DNA from: a virus
Direction: 5' to 3' (one strand)
DNA length: 37,542 bases
Virus record (IMG/VR): IMGVR_UViG_3300031857_000570
Coordinates: 1 to 37,542 of that record
The notes under the pieces were generated by a model. That model ran no database searches. It had not been told where the DNA came from and saw only the letters and a list, made by a program, of their open reading frames with translations. This document shows positions 982-34,685 of the stretch, piece after piece; the first letter of the stretch is position 1, and each line of letters starts with the position of its first letter. The translations under genes were made by a program, and so were the position numbers.

Positions 982-1641
982 ATGAATGATTTGCTATCTA
1001 ATATTTTAATTCAACCTAAAGTTGTCACAAAAGAAAATTGTAAATATCTGATTGACTTTGCAAACTCTGCCGAACAAGAGCAGATGGGAGTCTTTGATCC
1101 TGATAAAACTAATCTCACAAAACAATCAGAACATAAGGTAGATAAAACATCAAGAGATGTTAAATGTGCTGATATCACTCCAATTCTTCCTCAAGTTCAC
1201 GACTTGATGGCAAACATTATTGATCACGTTATCAATCCTTTTTATAACTTTAAGATTCGTGATAGTGAAATGCCACAACTTCTTTATTATCAAAAAGGAG
1301 GGCACTATAAACCTCACTATGATGCAGAAGCACTTTGGACAAATCCTGATGGAACAACTATGTGGAAAAAGAGTGTAGATCGTGATCTTTCTACAGTTCT
1401 TTTTTTAAATGATGATTTTGAAGGTGGTTATTTTTCTTTTCCGGATTTAAGAATTAAGATCAAACCAGAACCAGGGCTTCTTGTTTGTTTTCCATCCTCC
1501 AGATACTATAAACATTGTGTAGAACCAGTTATTTCGGGACATCGTTATACACTTGTAACCTGGATGCGAGTGCAGGGATTTAAGACAAAAGAAGAACAAG
1601 ATAGAGAGATTGAAAAGAAATATGGAATCAAGGTTCCATAA
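982..1641 (+). CDS. 2OG-Fe(II) oxygenase, prolyl 4-hydroxylase type
   Basis: This 219-aa protein has the P4Hc double-stranded beta-helix signature. The Fe(II) ligands are H112 and D114 in GHYKPHYDAE and H178 in YYKHCVEP. The 2-oxoglutarate-binding basic residue is R188 in GHRYTLVTWM. The FLNDDFEGGYFSFP segment (141-154) is also typical of the family, and the length matches stand-alone P4H domains. The family hydroxylates a protein side chain using O2 and 2-oxoglutarate in the cytoplasm. The gene lies between the kelch-like protein and a tail-assembly chaperone, so a virion protein is a plausible substrate. The nearby collagen-like fibres are poor classical substrates because their Y positions are almost always Gln, not Pro. 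The family is confident; the substrate is unknown. Confidence 0.9.
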   Translation: MNDLLSNILIQPKVVTKENCKYLIDFANSAEQEQMGVFDPDKTNLTKQSEHKVDKTSRDVKCADITPILPQVHDLMANIIDHVINPFYNFKIRDSEMPQLLYYQKGGHYKPHYDAEALWTNPDGTTMWKKSVDRDLSTVLFLNDDFEGGYFSFPDLRIKIKPEPGLLVCFPSSRYYKHCVEPVISGHRYTLVTWMRVQGFKTKEEQDREIEKKYGIKVP

Positions 1642-15070: not shown

Positions 15071-15748
15071 ATGAGAAAAGAAGAAGAATTGGAACTGCTT
15101 AAAAAACATCTTTTTAATATTTGTGGTCTTCATAATGAAAAAAATTCTGATTTAAACAGAGCAATAGCAGATGCAAAATCTCTGTTGATGGAATTATATC
15201 CAGAACCAGTTACAGAATGGTCTCAAGAAATTGAATGGAGAGTTTGTCCAGATTTTCCTGATTATGAAGTTTCAAACTATGGTGATGTAAGAAGATGCAA
15301 AGTTTGCACAAGAAATAGACAGTCATTCAAAGGAAAAATTTTAAAACCAAAAATAGATAAAAGAGGATATTATCAATATACATTATCAAAAGATAAAAAA
15401 TTTCATTACTTAACTGGACATAAATTGGTAGCAATTACATATATTGGAATGCCTTTAAATAAAAGTTTTGTAATTGCACATTTGGATGGAAGTAAATCTA
15501 ATAATTTTGTTGCAAATTTAAAATGGGTTAGCAATTCTGAAAATCAATTACACAGAAGAGTTCACGAAGATTTTGTTCCATTTAAGGGACATAATTCTTT
15601 GAGTGTTGAAGAAGTTAAAGATATTAGAAAAAGATTTATGGGAGGTGAATTGCAATCAAATTTAGCATCCAAATATGAGGTTTCTTACGGAGTAATAAAT
15701 AAGATTGTTAATAATGTAACATATATAAGGAGCATTTACTGTGTCTAA
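15071..15748 (+). CDS. HNH homing endonuclease with NUMOD4 domain
   Basis: This 225-aa protein has an unusual acidic N-terminal extension (1-50). A NUMOD4 motif (about 55-103) follows with WRVCPDFPDYEVSNYGDVRR and ILKPKIDKRGYYQYTL. The HNH nuclease core has H117 (GHKLV) and VIAHLDGSKSNNFVANLKW with H137, N144/N145 and N149, then SENQLHR. A C-terminal helix-turn-helix (about 177-221) reads SVEEVKDIRKRFMGG and NLASKYEVSYGVINKIV. Such free-standing enzymes cut intronless alleles and spread their gene into co-infecting phage genomes. Its 3' end contains the Shine-Dalgarno and GTG start of the next fibre gene, with an 8-bp overlap, so it has integrated into the operon without breaking expression. 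Confidence 0.88.
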   Translation: MRKEEELELLKKHLFNICGLHNEKNSDLNRAIADAKSLLMELYPEPVTEWSQEIEWRVCPDFPDYEVSNYGDVRRCKVCTRNRQSFKGKILKPKIDKRGYYQYTLSKDKKFHYLTGHKLVAITYIGMPLNKSFVIAHLDGSKSNNFVANLKWVSNSENQLHRRVHEDFVPFKGHNSLSVEEVKDIRKRFMGGELQSNLASKYEVSYGVINKIVNNVTYIRSIYCV

Positions 15749-27612: not shown

Positions 27613-28386
27613 ATGTACGATGATATTTCATTAGTTATTCAGGGTCCAGCATCAGATAAAGAAAAGTTGGACTTTGTTGATGCTCTTCCTTATTATAAAA
27701 CTTTGTTTTCTGAAATTATATTATCAACTTATACTGAACACTTAATATCTAATTGGCAACTTCTAAAAGTGTGTGAAGAAAATGATATTAAAATAGTTCA
27801 TAAAACTGTTGATATTAACAAATCATTATTAGATCATCCTACTAGCCCTTGCATTTATTATCAGACATATACAAGTTTGAATGGGTTTAAATTTTCATCA
27901 AAAAAATATACTATTAAACATAGAATAGATGAAAGGTATTCTAATTTGCATCTTTTAATTGATAAATTTTTGACTAGTAATGAGAAGTGGGTTTCGGGTG
28001 GAATGCTATTTGCCCCAAAGGTATGGAGATCTTTTTGTGCAGGAGATCATTTGTTTATTGCTCAAACAGAAAAACTAATTAAAACATTTGAATTGACAGA
28101 AGAACATCTAAGTAATAAATCTTTTTTGGAAGAAGGTCCAGAAATTACATATACAAAAAATTTTCTAAGAATTAATAATGAAGATCCTTCAGATGAAAAT
28201 CATGACGAATTGATGAGAAAATATTTTGATTTTGTCCCCGATAAGTATATGTTTCCTTTTATAATCAGATCTAATACTAATGAAGAAGGAAATAAAGTTT
28301 GGAGGACTCTTGAAGAATATGGTTCACTTAGATCTCAATATGAAACACTAGATGACATTTTTTATAGTCCATATTTACCTTGGTAA
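27613..28386 (+). CDS. WavE-type LPS core biosynthesis protein
   Basis: This 257-aa protein opens with DISLVIQGPASDKEK (4-18), the WavE-family start. SEIILSTYTEHL (33-44) and YTIKHRIDERYSNL (99-112, with R104, D106, E107 and R108) follow. GMLFAPKVWRSFCAGDHLFI (130-149) matches the family's 'FaGDhlfig' segment. PF07507 proteins are linked to LPS core synthesis in Vibrio and occur in other surface-polysaccharide loci. They are probably GT-A glycosyltransferases, although the reaction is poorly defined. It is flanked closely by the methyltransferase fusion and the nucleotidyltransferase. Confidence 0.78.
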   Translation: MYDDISLVIQGPASDKEKLDFVDALPYYKTLFSEIILSTYTEHLISNWQLLKVCEENDIKIVHKTVDINKSLLDHPTSPCIYYQTYTSLNGFKFSSKKYTIKHRIDERYSNLHLLIDKFLTSNEKWVSGGMLFAPKVWRSFCAGDHLFIAQTEKLIKTFELTEEHLSNKSFLEEGPEITYTKNFLRINNEDPSDENHDELMRKYFDFVPDKYMFPFIIRSNTNEEGNKVWRTLEEYGSLRSQYETLDDIFYSPYLPW

Positions 28387-29108: not shown

Positions 29109-29440
29109 ATATTACAAAAATAACTGATTATGTCAGAGGGTGGTTCATTGGAAACTTTGAACCATCTCTTTTAAAAACTTCTGCTTTTGAAGTTGGTGTT
29201 CTTACACATAAGAAAGGAGAATACTGGGCTCCACATTATCATAAGGAAAGTATAGAATATAATGTTCTCATAACTGGCAAAATGATCGTCCAGGGAAAGG
29301 AGTTAAATAGTGGTGATGTATTTGTATTCGACAAAGGAGAAGTTGCTGACCCAATTTTTCTTGAAGATTGTACATTAGTTGTAGTTAAAACACCATCTAT
29401 TCCTTCTGATAAATTTGAGGTTGAGAATGAAATTCTTTAG
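29105..29440 (+). CDS. Small cupin
   Basis: This 111-aa single-domain cupin has motif 1, GEYWAPHYHKESIEYNVLITG, spanning about 38-58, with H44, H46 and E51 as likely metal ligands. Motif 2 is weaker (GDVFVFDKGEVADPIF). Cupins of this size in sugar clusters are isomerases, epimerases or small binding proteins acting on NDP-sugars or sugar acids. Motif 2 lacks an evident histidine, so the metal site may be incomplete. It overlaps the nucleotidyltransferase by 4 bp and the RuBisCO-like gene by 14 bp, the tightest packing in the cassette, which suggests the three products serve one step series. Confidence 0.75.
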   Translation: MNITKITDYVRGWFIGNFEPSLLKTSAFEVGVLTHKKGEYWAPHYHKESIEYNVLITGKMIVQGKELNSGDVFVFDKGEVADPIFLEDCTLVVVKTPSIPSDKFEVENEIL

Positions 29441-30665
29441 AGAACTTACTGAATATGAAAGAGATCGTTGCGTAGTTGCAACATATTACATCGAATCATA
29501 TGAAAATATTGGAACATTAAGGGATGCTGCCTGGAATCTTGCCATTGGGCAAAGTGTCGGCAACCCTAAAGTAAGAAATCGTTGGGAGAGTGATGAACTC
29601 TTTGAACTAGCATCTTGTGTCATCTATGCTGATGAACAAGAACTTTCTCAACAGACAAAGGGACAAGTTAAAATTGGTTTCCCCAAAGTTAATACTGACT
29701 GGGAAGGTGATGGCATTTCACATCTTCTTTGCCAACTGATGGGTGGGCAATTGGATATTGATGTGTTCAAAGTCTGTCGTCTTCAGAAATTGGAGTTTCC
29801 TGCTGATGTAGAAGCACAATTCCTTGGACCCAAGAATGGTATTGATGGGATTCGTAAGTTTGTCAATCGTTATGACAAACCACTTTCTGGTGCGATTGTA
29901 AAACCCAAGACAGGTATTTCACCACAAACTCTTTCTGAGATGGTGAAGGAACTTCTTGATGGTGGTGTAGATTTCATCAAGGAAGATGAAATTCTTTCTA
30001 ATCCTTCCTTCTGCCGTCTTGAAGATCGTGTAGAACTCATTTCAAATATCGTAAACAACTGTGGTCGTAATGTCATTTATACTTTCTGTATTAATGGTGA
30101 TCACCATACTATTCTTGATCGTGCTAAATTTGTTGCTGACAATGGTGGGAATGGTATTCATATTAATTTTTGGTCTGGTCTTGGGGTTTATAACTCTGTA
30201 AGAAAGATGGACCTGCCTCTGTTCATTCACTATCAGAAGAGTGGTGATAAGATCCTGACTGATAAGAGACACGCATTTGGAATAGATTGGGATGTTCTCT
30301 GCGACCTTGCTGGTCTGTGTGGTGTTGATACCATCCATGCAGGAATGTGGGGTGGTTATCTGAGTGATGATGAGAATGAACTTCGTCAAACGATGTCAAC
30401 ACTTCACAAACGGAATGTTCTCCCAGCATTGAGCTGTGGGATGCATCCAGGCATCGTCAACACCACTGCAGAGAAGTTCGGCACGGACTTCCTTGCTAAC
30501 TGTGGAGGTGCCATCCACGGGCATCCAGAGGGCACTCTGTCGGGTGCTCTGGCAATGAGACAATCTATTGATAAAACTCCTGGTCCAGAATTTCGTGCTG
30601 CCATTGATAAGTGGGGTTATGAAACTGGTGGTGGTTCTCTTCCTGAGTGGGTATTAGATTTTTGA
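29427..30665 (+). CDS. RuBisCO-like protein (form IV-type, probably not a carboxylase)
   Basis: The ATG at 29427 follows GAGG by 7 nt and gives 412 aa, full length for RuBisCO-like proteins. Conserved segments are GAIVKPKTGIS (155-165; K159 and K161 match K175/K177 of plant RbcL) and GGVDFIKEDE (179-188; K185, D187 and E188 match K201, D203 and E204). TIHAG (302-306; H304 = H327), PALSCGMH (S336 = S379) and CGGAIHGHPEG (359-369) are also present. By hand alignment several catalytic residues are replaced: Q270 at H294, K271 at R295, Y311 at K334, N46 at T65 and H99 at N123. This suggests an enolase, isomerase or transcarboxylase-type reaction on a sugar acid, as known for RuBisCO-like proteins, not CO2 fixation. 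Its 3' half is GC-richer than its neighbours. Confidence 0.88.
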   Translation: MKFFRELTEYERDRCVVATYYIESYENIGTLRDAAWNLAIGQSVGNPKVRNRWESDELFELASCVIYADEQELSQQTKGQVKIGFPKVNTDWEGDGISHLLCQLMGGQLDIDVFKVCRLQKLEFPADVEAQFLGPKNGIDGIRKFVNRYDKPLSGAIVKPKTGISPQTLSEMVKELLDGGVDFIKEDEILSNPSFCRLEDRVELISNIVNNCGRNVIYTFCINGDHHTILDRAKFVADNGGNGIHINFWSGLGVYNSVRKMDLPLFIHYQKSGDKILTDKRHAFGIDWDVLCDLAGLCGVDTIHAGMWGGYLSDDENELRQTMSTLHKRNVLPALSCGMHPGIVNTTAEKFGTDFLANCGGAIHGHPEGTLSGALAMRQSIDKTPGPEFRAAIDKWGYETGGGSLPEWVLDF

Positions 30666-30690: not shown

Positions 30691-31851
30691 ATGAATTTTT
30701 CTGTAGACAATTATACCAGATGGAAAGAAGATCTGATAAAAAATATTCGATATAATGATTATAGGGATGATCTTGATTGGAATGGTGGAGAGTTTCCAGA
30801 AATACCAATTAAAAATGTTGATCTTAGGCATTCAAACCATGGATATACTATTACTCAGAGCGAGTGTAATTTGAATAATATTAGAGATTACTTTTTTAAA
30901 ATCCGAGATCAGTGCAAATGTATTCTTGAGATTGGAGTTGATTGTAATGCAACCGCAACTGAAAGAACATCTACAAGAATTTTCTTGGACAATAAGTTAG
31001 ATGAAACTATCTACATTGGACTTGATCTTAATGATAAGAGTTACTTAAATGATGAAAGTAAAAATATTTTTACTTTCCAAGCAGACTCTTCTGATACTGA
31101 ATCTGTTATGAATTTCATTCAATCAAAGGGAATTTCTGAGATAGATTTTATTTTTATAGATGGTTGGCACAGTATTAACCAAGTTATGAAAGATTGGGAA
31201 TACACCAAATACCTTTCTGACTTTGGTATTGTTGGATTTCATGATACTGCATCTCATCCAGGTCCTCACTCATTTATAAATGCTTTAGACAAAACAAAGT
31301 GGAATATAGTTGAAAATCCATGCTCAAATAACCAAAATGATTGGGGAGTTGGGTTTGCCTGGAGATGTAAAAAGAAAATACAAATCATTTCCCATAGAGG
31401 TAATCTTAACGGACCAAATCCATCAAGAGAAAATAGTCCAGAGTATATTGATGAAGCAATTGCAGCAGGATTTGATGTTGAAATTGATGTCAGATGTGAA
31501 GATCATAAGTTTTATCTTGGTCACGATGGACCTCAATATGAAATTCCTATGACTTGGTTATGGAAAAGGAAAGATAAACTTTGGATTCATTGTAAAGATC
31601 TGAGATCATTGGATGTTCTCTCTAGTAGTCCAGTTGATTTTCACTACTTTTGGCACGATATAGATAGATACACACTCACCAGTAAAGGTATTGGTTGGGT
31701 TTTAGTTGGTCAGTTTCCATTCAAAAAATCAATCGTAGTTCTTCCAGAATCTATTCATTATTATGATAAGTATGAGGGGAACTATGATAGAATATTAGAA
31801 ACGATGGGAATTTGTACCGATAAACCATTATTTTATAAAAATGAGTTATGA
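30691..31851 (+). CDS. Fusion: class I SAM methyltransferase + GDPD-like phosphodiesterase domain
   Basis: This 386-aa protein has a good ribosome-binding site, AGGAGT, 7 bp before ATG. Residues about 55-225 form a methyltransferase: CILEIGVD (77-84), YIGLDLNDK (108-116), IDFIFIDGWHSINQVMKDWE (151-170) and GIVGFHDT (179-186). Residues 230-386 form a GDPD-like TIM-barrel. Its features are IISHRGNLNGP (H235, R236), GFDVEIDVRC (E264, D266), YLGHDGPQYEI (H278), WIHCKDLRSLDVL (K302) and HYFWHDIDRYTLTSKG. The GDPD family cleaves glycerophosphodiesters; this short subfamily is common in phages and surface-sugar loci. The fusion may act on a glycerol-phosphate-decorated glycan, an inference. It overlaps the next gene by ATGA. 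Confidence 0.8.
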   Translation: MNFSVDNYTRWKEDLIKNIRYNDYRDDLDWNGGEFPEIPIKNVDLRHSNHGYTITQSECNLNNIRDYFFKIRDQCKCILEIGVDCNATATERTSTRIFLDNKLDETIYIGLDLNDKSYLNDESKNIFTFQADSSDTESVMNFIQSKGISEIDFIFIDGWHSINQVMKDWEYTKYLSDFGIVGFHDTASHPGPHSFINALDKTKWNIVENPCSNNQNDWGVGFAWRCKKKIQIISHRGNLNGPNPSRENSPEYIDEAIAAGFDVEIDVRCEDHKFYLGHDGPQYEIPMTWLWKRKDKLWIHCKDLRSLDVLSSSPVDFHYFWHDIDRYTLTSKGIGWVLVGQFPFKKSIVVLPESIHYYDKYEGNYDRILETMGICTDKPLFYKNEL

Positions 31852-34685
31852 GCATTTCTGTAATTTGTGCGTGCAAAAATCGCAATTCCCCTCTTCACAT
31901 ATCGTTAAATTCTTGGTTAAATTTTAAAGAAATTACTGAGATTATTATAGTTGATTGGAGTTCTGATGAACCTTTAGGATATCTAACTAAACTTGATCCA
32001 CGGATTAAAATTGTAAGAGTTTCAGATAAAAAATATTTTAATCAACCACAACCTTTAAACCTTGCTGCAAGTATTGCGACTGGTGATTATATTCTTAAAC
32101 TTGATACTGATTATATAACTAATCCATATTTCAATTTTATTGAAAGATATTTTCCTACAGATAATTCTTTCACTTCAGGAGTTCATAATATCAAAAGTCC
32201 AGAATACTATGACGAAGAAACTGGTCTTTATATGATCGACAAATCTAGTATGAGTGATGCTGATTTGCAGGAATATTTCAACTCTTATAGCCCATACTTT
32301 AAGTATCTTACTGGATTTTTATTTGTTAGTAGAGAGAACTTTAATAAAGTTGGTGGATATAATGAAAATCTTGGAAAATACTATGCATTTGAGGATAGTG
32401 AGATTTATAAGAGATTGGAAAATCTTGGATTAACTCACAACAAAATGGATTATGATTATAATTTAATTCATATTCCACACCCAGATGTTAAGAGAGTTGA
32501 AAACTTTGAGGGTTATGATGAAAAAGATAGAGAATGGATAAATTCAATTCAATATGATCCAGATAGATGGCAAGCCGAATACTTCATTTCTCAATCACAT
32601 GTTAAACAAAATGTAGGAATGATTGGAGAAATTGATTATACATATGTCAATTCAAAGACTAAATGGGATGTTATTAGAGTAGATGAACAAAATTATTTTG
32701 CAGAAGATCTAAAAGTGGAAAATAAGTTAGATGGATTTTCAAGTGTTTATTATGTAAGTCTTGAAGAATGTGGGAATAGAAGAAGAAATCTGGAATTTGA
32801 ATTTGATAAGTATAATATCCAACCAAAAGCAATCATATCAAAAAGATTTTCAGAATGCAGTGATATTATTACAGGAAAATATGTTTATCAGTTAAATGAT
32901 GGAACAAAGGGATGTTGCATATCTCATCTTAAAGCAATTAAAGATTGGTATGAAAATACTGATGAAGACTATGGATTTTTCTGTGAGGATGATTTAAGTC
33001 TAGAAACAGTTGAATATTGGAATTTTACTTGGCAACAATTTATAGAAAGTATTCCAGAAGATGCAGATTGCGTTCAGTTACTTACAATCCGTAGTGAGTT
33101 TGATACATTTGAAATTCGTGAGAGATATTGGGATGATTGGGGAGCAACAGCATATATTATGACTAGAGATTATGCTAAAAAGATAATTGATACTTATGTC
33201 AAAGAAGATTCATATCATTTAGAAATTCCAAATCAAGACGTAATGCCTTTAATAGAAAATATTCTGTTTGCAAGTGTTGGAAAAACATATACTTACCCAA
33301 TATTTGTTGAAAATATTGATTTTAAATCCACTTTTGTTGGAAATGATGATGATGTAAGTGATGGTCAAAAAACAAATCATAAGAAGTCAAGAGAGATTGT
33401 TTTAAATTATTGGAAAAATAAAAATATAGTAGAAAAGACGGAACTTGAAGTCCTTTTAACGGAATATTCTTGCGATACTGAAAATCCGGAACATAATTTT
33501 AGTCTTGGTATTTGGTATGAAAATGAAGGACACACTGCCCCAGCTCTTTCATACTATTTAAGATGTGCAGAAAGAGCATATGAATCTAATTCAGATTTAG
33601 CATATGAAGCCCTCATTCGGGGTTCTTATTGCTACGAGAAGCAGGGAACAAGAGATGGAAGTGCAAGATCAATGCTCTGGCAAGCACAAGCATTTAGACC
33701 AGATAGACCAGAGTCACACTTTTTATTGTCAAGATTTGCAGAGAGAAGAGAATGGTGGCAAGATTGTTATATGAATGCAGATTTGGCACTTAGATATTGC
33801 AATTTTGACAATCAACCTCTTCGCACTAATGTTGAATATCCAGGGCAATATGGACTTTTATACTTAAAATCAATTGCTGCTTGGTGGTGGGGGAAGGGAA
33901 AAGAAACTAGACTTCTCCTACAAGAAATAAAAAATAATCATCAAGTTAGATCTGAAGATTTTGATTTAATTCAAAATCGCTTGATGGAATTAGCTACTGG
34001 ATATATTCCAGAATCTGAATTAAAGTACACTAAGAATACTGGTCAAGAGTTAAGATTTAAATTTAATGATTGTGAAAATATAGAGAGAAATTATTCGCAA
34101 GCATTTCAAGATTTATTTGTATTGACTGCTTTAGATGGAAAGAAAAATGGAACTTATCTTGAAATAGGAGCACAAGAACCATTTTATCAAAATAATACTG
34201 CTCTTTTAGAAACTCAATTTGAGTGGAAAGGTGTATCTATAGAAATACGTCAAGATTTGTGTGAAATGTTTTCTCAACAAAGAAAAAACACAATATTATG
34301 TCAGGATGCTACAAAAATAAATTATCTTAACTTATTGAACAATTTTAAGTATGGAAATATAATTGATTATCTTCAAGTGGATTGTGAGCCATCTAAAACT
34401 ACATTTGAAATCTTATTAATGATTCCATTTGATGAATATCAATTCAGAATTATTACTTATGAGCACGATTATTATGTTGATTTAACAAATTCATATAGAG
34501 ACAAATCTAGAGAATACTTATTGTCAAAAGGATATAAACTTCTTGTTTCTAACGTCGCACTAAATGAATGGAGTCCATTTGAAGATTGGTGGTATCATCC
34601 AGATCTTGTTGATCCTGCCATTGTAGAACAAGTAAAAAATATATCCGACATTACAGATATAAGGCACTATATGATTGAACGCTAA
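31848..34685 (+). CDS. Four-domain glycan enzyme: GT2 + GT25 + TPR-like + SAM methyltransferase
   Basis: This protein is 945 aa. Residues 1-250 are a GT2 glycosyltransferase (MSISVICACKNRN, IIIVDWSSDEP, DYILKLDTDY with D86-x-D88, YAFEDSEIYKRL). Residues about 296-525 are a GT25-type domain (SSVYYVSLEECGNRRRNLEF, KGCCISHLKAIKDW, DYGFFCEDDLSLE with E380-D-D382, DDWGATAYIMTRDYAKKIID). Residues about 545-715 are helical, TPR-like repeats (NPEHNFSLGIWYENEGHTAP, SHFLLSRFAERREWWQDCYM). Residues about 748-920 are an FkbM/Methyltransf-like domain (NGTYLEIGAQEPFY, DYLQVDCEPS). Two transferases, a scaffold and a methyltransferase in one chain could assemble and cap one repeat unit. It is last in the cassette and is followed by a strong hairpin. 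Confidence 0.82.
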   Translation: MSISVICACKNRNSPLHISLNSWLNFKEITEIIIVDWSSDEPLGYLTKLDPRIKIVRVSDKKYFNQPQPLNLAASIATGDYILKLDTDYITNPYFNFIERYFPTDNSFTSGVHNIKSPEYYDEETGLYMIDKSSMSDADLQEYFNSYSPYFKYLTGFLFVSRENFNKVGGYNENLGKYYAFEDSEIYKRLENLGLTHNKMDYDYNLIHIPHPDVKRVENFEGYDEKDREWINSIQYDPDRWQAEYFISQSHVKQNVGMIGEIDYTYVNSKTKWDVIRVDEQNYFAEDLKVENKLDGFSSVYYVSLEECGNRRRNLEFEFDKYNIQPKAIISKRFSECSDIITGKYVYQLNDGTKGCCISHLKAIKDWYENTDEDYGFFCEDDLSLETVEYWNFTWQQFIESIPEDADCVQLLTIRSEFDTFEIRERYWDDWGATAYIMTRDYAKKIIDTYVKEDSYHLEIPNQDVMPLIENILFASVGKTYTYPIFVENIDFKSTFVGNDDDVSDGQKTNHKKSREIVLNYWKNKNIVEKTELEVLLTEYSCDTENPEHNFSLGIWYENEGHTAPALSYYLRCAERAYESNSDLAYEALIRGSYCYEKQGTRDGSARSMLWQAQAFRPDRPESHFLLSRFAERREWWQDCYMNADLALRYCNFDNQPLRTNVEYPGQYGLLYLKSIAAWWWGKGKETRLLLQEIKNNHQVRSEDFDLIQNRLMELATGYIPESELKYTKNTGQELRFKFNDCENIERNYSQAFQDLFVLTALDGKKNGTYLEIGAQEPFYQNNTALLETQFEWKGVSIEIRQDLCEMFSQQRKNTILCQDATKINYLNLLNNFKYGNIIDYLQVDCEPSKTTFEILLMIPFDEYQFRIITYEHDYYVDLTNSYRDKSREYLLSKGYKLLVSNVALNEWSPFEDWWYHPDLVDPAIVEQVKNISDITDIRHYMIER

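What the first reader, a model, noticed from the sequence alone, without database searches (positions are those of the whole stretch)
31848..34685. A four-domain GT2-GT25-TPR-methyltransferase protein
One 945-aa chain joins two glycosyltransferase folds with separate acidic metal motifs (D86-x-D88; E380-D-D382), a helical TPR-like scaffold and an FkbM-like methyltransferase. The combination would allow successive sugar addition followed by a methyl cap, a known way to stop chain growth in polysaccharide synthesis.
Basis: partly seen in the sequence, partly recalled or inferred. Interest (0 to 1): 0.7.

Follow-up and report, generated by a model that had tools for sequence, protein, structure and literature searches.

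The report
Modular sugar-adding, methylating cyanophage enzyme
A T4-like virus of marine cyanobacteria carries one long protein that joins two different sugar-adding enzymes, a helical docking scaffold and a methyl-adding enzyme; the layout is real and conserved, resembles known multi-enzyme proteins of algal viruses, and its last part is repeatedly swapped or lost among relatives, which suggests that these viruses build and vary glycans by exchanging enzyme modules.

Summary
ORF 31848-34685 (945 aa) contains a GT2 domain, a GT25 domain, a TPR scaffold and an FkbM-type class I methyltransferase, supported by profiles, relatives and predicted structure. The two acidic motifs are invariant in 48-56 relatives and follow a strand, where GT-A enzymes hold their metal motif. 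All four domains are under purifying selection. Relatives sit on contigs with T4 gp23 and psbA (T4-like cyanophages). Two GT domains plus a methyltransferase in one viral protein is known in kind: PBCV-1 A064R adds two rhamnoses and methylates the last. What looks new is the TPR-containing phage version and its modularity. Among 60 clusters the GT2-GT25-TPR core is followed by this methyltransferase, another FkbM methyltransferase, WavE, GT2, a Methyltransf_24-like domain, or nothing; the C-terminal module needs at least 14 changes on a tree of the core. No acceptor, sugar or product is known. A RuBisCO-like gene two genes upstream, absent from 50,697 phage records, deserves a look of its own.

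The parts
31848..34685 (+). 945-aa GT2-GT25-TPR-methyltransferase protein (stop codon included)
   Evidence: single open frame; full-length relatives in independent contigs
31848..32645 (+). GT2 domain, residues 1-266 (GT-A fold, Glyco_transf_7C-like C-terminal part)
   Evidence: PF00535 and PF02709 above cut-off; fold matches
32103..32111 (+). D86-x-D88 metal motif of the GT2 domain
   Evidence: 48/48 relatives; follows strand 81-84 in the model
32391..32396 (+). E182-D183, likely catalytic-base region of the GT2 domain
   Evidence: D183 in 50/50 relatives; aligns with the EDD of beta-1,4-galactosyltransferase 1
32715..33422 (+). GT25 domain, residues 290-525
   Evidence: phrog_2835 E 1.4e-49; relatives above Pfam cut-off; 9crz R655 Z 17.3
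32985..32993 (+). E380-D381-D382 motif of the GT25 domain
   Evidence: 56/56 relatives; at the end of strand 375-380
33435..33998 (+). TPR scaffold, residues 530-717
   Evidence: TPR fold matches Z 16-17; profile match to consensus TPRs; L051 TPR_17
34059..34673 (+). FkbM-like class I SAM methyltransferase domain, residues 738-942
   Evidence: 21/23 alignment members hit PF05050; fold
34161..34172 (+). E772-I-G-A775, presumed SAM-binding loop
   Evidence: G774 29/29, E772 26/30; position by analogy with class I methyltransferases
34380..34388 (+). D845-C-E847, FkbM-type acidic motif
   Evidence: D845 27/27, E847 26/27
30691..31851 (+). upstream gene, Methyltransf_24-like, overlapping the start by 4 nt (coupled operon neighbour)

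Best explanation
A soluble assembly-line enzyme of a T4-like cyanophage that builds and finishes a short glycan. The GT2 and GT25 domains each transfer a sugar from a nucleotide donor, and the C-terminal FkbM-type domain methylates a hydroxyl of the product, most likely on the last sugar, as A064R does in chlorovirus PBCV-1. The TPR domain between them holds the acceptor or a partner protein, as TPR domains do in FlmG. Shown here: the four domains, conserved catalytic motifs, purifying selection, and an exchangeable C-terminal module. Inferred: that each domain is active, the order of steps, the sugars, and the acceptor. The acceptor may be a phage virion protein or a host surface glycan; I lean slightly to a protein because of the TPR domain.
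For: Domain evidence. Invariant GT motifs and near-invariant methyltransferase motifs. dN/dS 0.03-0.25 per domain in nearly all pairs, including the methyltransferase. Same four-domain order in 17 clusters. No hydrophobic segment (maximum 19-residue Kyte-Doolittle mean 0.81), so probably soluble. Relatives on contigs with gp23 and psbA. Setting next to methyltransferases, GT11 and a nucleotidyltransferase. Tested precedent for two GTs plus a methyltransferase in one viral chain: A064R (PMC9614988). Precedent for a TPR that brings a protein acceptor to a GT: FlmG (PMC7591256).
Against: No enzymatic data. Relative placement of the domains is uncertain (pTM 0.39). Fold matches for the GT2-GT25 pair include human COLGALT1, in which DXD motifs of both lobes are needed for one activity (PMC3244457), so successive action is not proven. 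The TPR could bind something other than the acceptor. The methyltransferase matches many class I enzymes about equally, so a sugar substrate rests on family and context.
Confidence: 0.55

Rival explanations
1. Chain terminator: the methyltransferase caps the growing end of a polysaccharide made by the two GT domains and so sets its length (WbdD-like logic; the reader's reading).
For: Order GT, GT, methyltransferase in one chain; methyl caps are an established way to end O-antigen chains (general knowledge); best whole-model Foldseek matches are two-domain polymerases, K4CP and heparosan synthase 2.
Against: Close relatives keep the core but lack the methyltransferase or carry GT2 or WavE in its place; no polymerase, flippase or transporter recognised nearby; two unlike GT families do not themselves indicate a polymer.
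Confidence: 0.12
2. COLGALT1-like enzyme: the GT2-type lobe and the GT25 lobe serve one transfer reaction together, followed by methylation.
For: COLGALT1 aligned along residues 1-500 in the same order (Z 16.3, but rmsd 19); in GLT25D1 motifs 166-168 and 461-463 are both essential for one activity (PMC3244457).
Against: GT2 and GT25 occur as separate genes or with the GT2 missing in relatives (L089, L103, L104, L119, L124), and GT25 alone is common in cyanophages, so the GT25 unit can probably work without the GT2 unit; all GT2 motifs are conserved.
Confidence: 0.15
3. Glycosylation of hydroxylysine in the phage's collagen-like tail fibres by the GT25 domain.
For: GT25 fold of R655 and COLGALT1; collagen-like fibres and a 2OG-Fe(II) oxygenase in the window.
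Against: No lysine at X or Y in 390 window GXY triplets and 3 in 1520 X or Y positions of related loci; only 8 of 59 representative loci hold a collagen-like ORF (flanks are short).
Confidence: 0.03
4. Host-surface remodelling: the enzyme changes LPS or O-antigen of the cyanobacterium during infection, for example to block superinfection (same chemistry, other acceptor).
For: GT25, WavE and FkbM domains are typical of LPS or O-antigen loci (family descriptions); cassette of sugar genes.
Against: TPR-GT fusions with known acceptors act on proteins (FlmG; OGT); no membrane segment. Not excluded.
Confidence: 0.35

Closest known systems
PBCV-1 A064R (638 aa, PMC9614988)
   Same: Virus-encoded chain with two glycosyltransferase domains followed by a C-terminal methyltransferase; tested to add two rhamnoses and methylate the last one
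   Different: No TPR; host is a green alga; D1 is GT34-like and D2 a new GT family (per the review), not GT2 and GT25. Homology of the domains was not tested here
COLGALT1/GLT25D1 and mimivirus R655
   Same: GT25 fold; COLGALT1 has a GT-A lobe before the GT25 lobe, with essential motifs in both
   Different: No TPR or methyltransferase; COLGALT1 acts on collagen hydroxylysine, for which the window's fibres offer no lysine
K4 chondroitin polymerase and P. multocida heparosan synthase 2
   Same: Two GT-A domains in one chain; best whole-model Foldseek matches
   Different: Both polymerise a repeat; no TPR or methyltransferase
FlmG of Caulobacter (PMC7591256) and OGT
   Same: TPR domain fused to a glycosyltransferase; in FlmG the TPR binds the protein acceptor
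   Different: GT-B fold, one catalytic domain, no methyltransferase
Synechococcus phage S-SCSM2R gene SSCSM2R_195; DSL-LC02 'FkbM family methyltransferase' gene
   Same: S-SCSM2R: same TPR plus methyltransferase half, 44% identical; DSL-LC02: a TPR relative in a gene annotated FkbM
   Different: S-SCSM2R: no GT domain fused (a DUF6445 domain follows), its GT2 relative lies elsewhere in the genome. DSL-LC02: only the TPR part of the query matched
Cyanophage GT25 proteins (PHROG 2835)
   Same: Same GT25 domain, matched in most of 99 phage records
   Different: About 30-37% identical and without the rest of this protein

Membership tests
GT2 (GT-A fold) | Pfam GT2 profile above cut-off | tested here: met
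   PF00535 32 bits against 23.3
GT2 (GT-A fold) | DXD motif and downstream acidic base region conserved | tested here: met
   D86/D88 48/48; D183 50/50
GT25 | Pfam GT25 profile above cut-off | tested here: inconclusive
   Window 20.6 bits against 24; relatives pass; phrog_2835 E 1.4e-49
GT25 | EDD motif | tested here: met
   E380-D382 56/56
GT25 | Fold of a GT25-like member | tested here: met
   9crz R655 Z 17.3, rmsd 3.2, 190 aligned
TPR | Helical repeat fold and repeat profile | tested here: met
   Z 16-17 to several TPR proteins (helical repeats reach such Z easily, so profile hits count too)
FkbM methyltransferase (PF05050) | Profile match | tested here: inconclusive
   Window no hit; 21 of 23 alignment members hit, best E 8.9e-6
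FkbM methyltransferase (PF05050) | Class I SAM methyltransferase fold | tested here: met
A064R-type GT-GT-MT enzyme | Sequential transfer of two sugars, then methylation | not testable with these tools
   needs enzymology
Chain-terminating methyltransferase (WbdD type) | Methylation ends polymer growth | not testable with these tools
   indirect evidence against
Collagen hydroxylysine glycosyltransferase (COLGALT type) | Lysine in the collagen-like acceptor | tested here: not met
   0 lysines at X or Y in 390 GXY triplets of the window's fibres; other acceptors were not tested

The most novel reading that the evidence does not exclude
A family of combinatorial glycan-assembly enzymes in T4-like cyanophages: a fixed GT2-GT25-TPR core with an exchangeable C-terminal slot (two kinds of FkbM methyltransferase, another methyltransferase, WavE, GT2, or empty) and optional added domains, swapped by recombination so that phages vary the glycan they make.
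Probability: 0.35. Interest if true: 0.6.

Novelty: new variant of a known kind. Interest (0 to 1): 0.4.

Why it matters
Glycosylation by marine phages is poorly understood. A single protein with two sugar-transfer domains, a docking scaffold and a methyltransferase is a compact, testable unit, and the repeated swapping of its last module is a natural domain-exchange series from which the effect of each module could be read.

Tried and rejected
PDB sequence search with the single protein gave only annexin noise; with the methyltransferase profile nothing useful. hhalign of the methyltransferase against the other two FkbM modules was weak (0.3% and 4.4% probability, thin alignments), so kinship between the swapped methyltransferase modules is not shown. 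NCBIfam gave nothing for the methyltransferase. No relative in bacterial and archaeal genome contigs, but that scan used only two short patterns, so it is a weak negative. Collagen-hydroxylysine idea disfavoured for lack of lysine. No Rfam hit in the window. Promoter and terminator scans hardly differ from shuffles. No paper describing this family was found in the library held, which does not prove that none exists. Three alignment calls failed on coordinates and one paper look-up and one ticket call on wrong input (37, 78).

Full report
What was checked. The ORF at 31848-34685 is open and unbroken, 945 aa, and its ATG overlaps the stop of the gene before it by 4 nt. The window is a 37.5 kb virus record with collagen-like tail fibres followed by a run of glycan-type genes on the same strand.

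Domains. Residues 1-266 are GT2: Pfam GT2 and Glyco_transf_7C pass their cut-offs and the model matches GT-A enzymes. Residues 290-525 are GT25: PHROG 2835 E 1.4e-49; the Pfam score is below cut-off in the window but above it in relatives; the best single-domain fold match is mimivirus R655, Z 17.3, rmsd 3.2 over 190 residues. Residues 530-717 are a TPR scaffold. Residues 738-942 are an FkbM-like methyltransferase: 21 of 23 alignment members hit PF05050, and the separate model is a class I SAM methyltransferase. The full model has mean pLDDT 86 but pTM 0.39: single domains are well predicted, their arrangement is not.

Active sites. D86 and D88 are present in 48 of 48 relatives, D183 in 50 of 50, E380, D381 and D382 in 56 of 56; in the methyltransferase G774 in 29 of 29, D840 and D845 in 27 of 27, E847 in 26 of 27. 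The two acidic motifs follow strands as in GT-A enzymes. dN/dS by domain is 0.03-0.25 in nearly all pairs, the exception being the GT2 domain of L002 against L004 at 0.42 (several dS values are near saturation, so the numbers are rough). No domain looks decayed.

Family. A first scan gave 49 related viral loci, a second 320 candidates of which 80 were kept. No record among 50,697 phage records holds 80% of the protein in one place; the isolate S-SCSM2R holds the TPR-methyltransferase half in one gene and a GT2 relative elsewhere. Of ten long contigs tested, taken from both the family search and the RuBisCO-like search, four carry T4 gp23 and four psbA, and nine hold a relative of the protein: these are T4-like cyanophages.

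Modularity. Local profiles for each module sorted 142 ORFs into 60 clusters at 90% identity. GT2-GT25-TPR-MT, the window's layout, is the commonest (15 clusters plus 2 cut by a contig end). Others end after the TPR, or carry a different FkbM domain, WavE, GT2 or a Methyltransf_24-like domain there; some have FkbM or GT2 added in front, GT17 inserted, or a second GT25. The layouts shown as GT2-GT2 may be split hits, judging by length. On a tree of the core the C-terminal label needs 14 changes where 5 is the least possible; the second FkbM module alone needs 5, all forced by well-supported branches, and one of the window's closest relatives, L079, carries it. So the slot is exchanged often, though the labels are also clustered (shuffled mean 25).

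Function. The nearest tested parallel is A064R of chlorovirus PBCV-1: two GT domains and a methyltransferase that together add two rhamnoses and methylate O-2 of the last (PMC9614988). COLGALT1 warns that two GT lobes may serve a single activity (PMC3244457). TPR-GT fusions such as FlmG use the TPR to bind a protein acceptor (PMC7591256), which makes a virion protein a fair candidate, but a host surface glycan cannot be excluded. Hydroxylysine in collagen-like fibres is disfavoured: no lysine at X or Y in 390 triplets.

Verdict. Real, conserved, correctly described; a new variant of a known kind of multi-enzyme viral glycan protein. Interest moderate, mainly for the module exchange.

Noticed in passing
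window 29415-30665: RuBisCO-superfamily protein inside the glycan cassette: PF00016 E 1e-42, solved RuBisCOs E 1.5e-39, KPKTG and FIKEDE active-site stretches kept by eye. No match in 50,697 phage records but 225 candidate viral loci; 18 of the 80 kept also carry a GT25-TPR protein nearby. Possibly a sugar-phosphate enolase or isomerase for the cassette; may be more surprising than the finding.
   Followed up: partly
L179 (contig of 518,643 bases): A jumbo-size virus record carries a 62% identical RuBisCO-like gene and gp23 but no relative of the 945-aa protein.
   Followed up: no
contig of L094 (G002), 79757-82223: psbA is matched in three pieces with gaps and stops between them, as if interrupted by introns or inserts.
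   Followed up: no
window 15071-15748: NUMOD4/HNH homing-endonuclease-type gene among the tail fibre genes.
   Followed up: no
window 27613-28386: No Pfam hit, but its start (SLVIQGPASDKEKLDF..) resembles, by eye, the WavE modules fused to the GT2-GT25-TPR core in L118, L120 and L123.
   Followed up: no
L002:1712-4111: Neighbouring 800-aa protein with GT17, RmlD-type reductase and, by BLAST, a GT25 domain: another unusual fusion next to a family member.
   Followed up: no
window 982-1641: 2OG-Fe(II) oxygenase (PF13640 E 5.6e-16) close to the tail fibre genes; target unknown.
   Followed up: no
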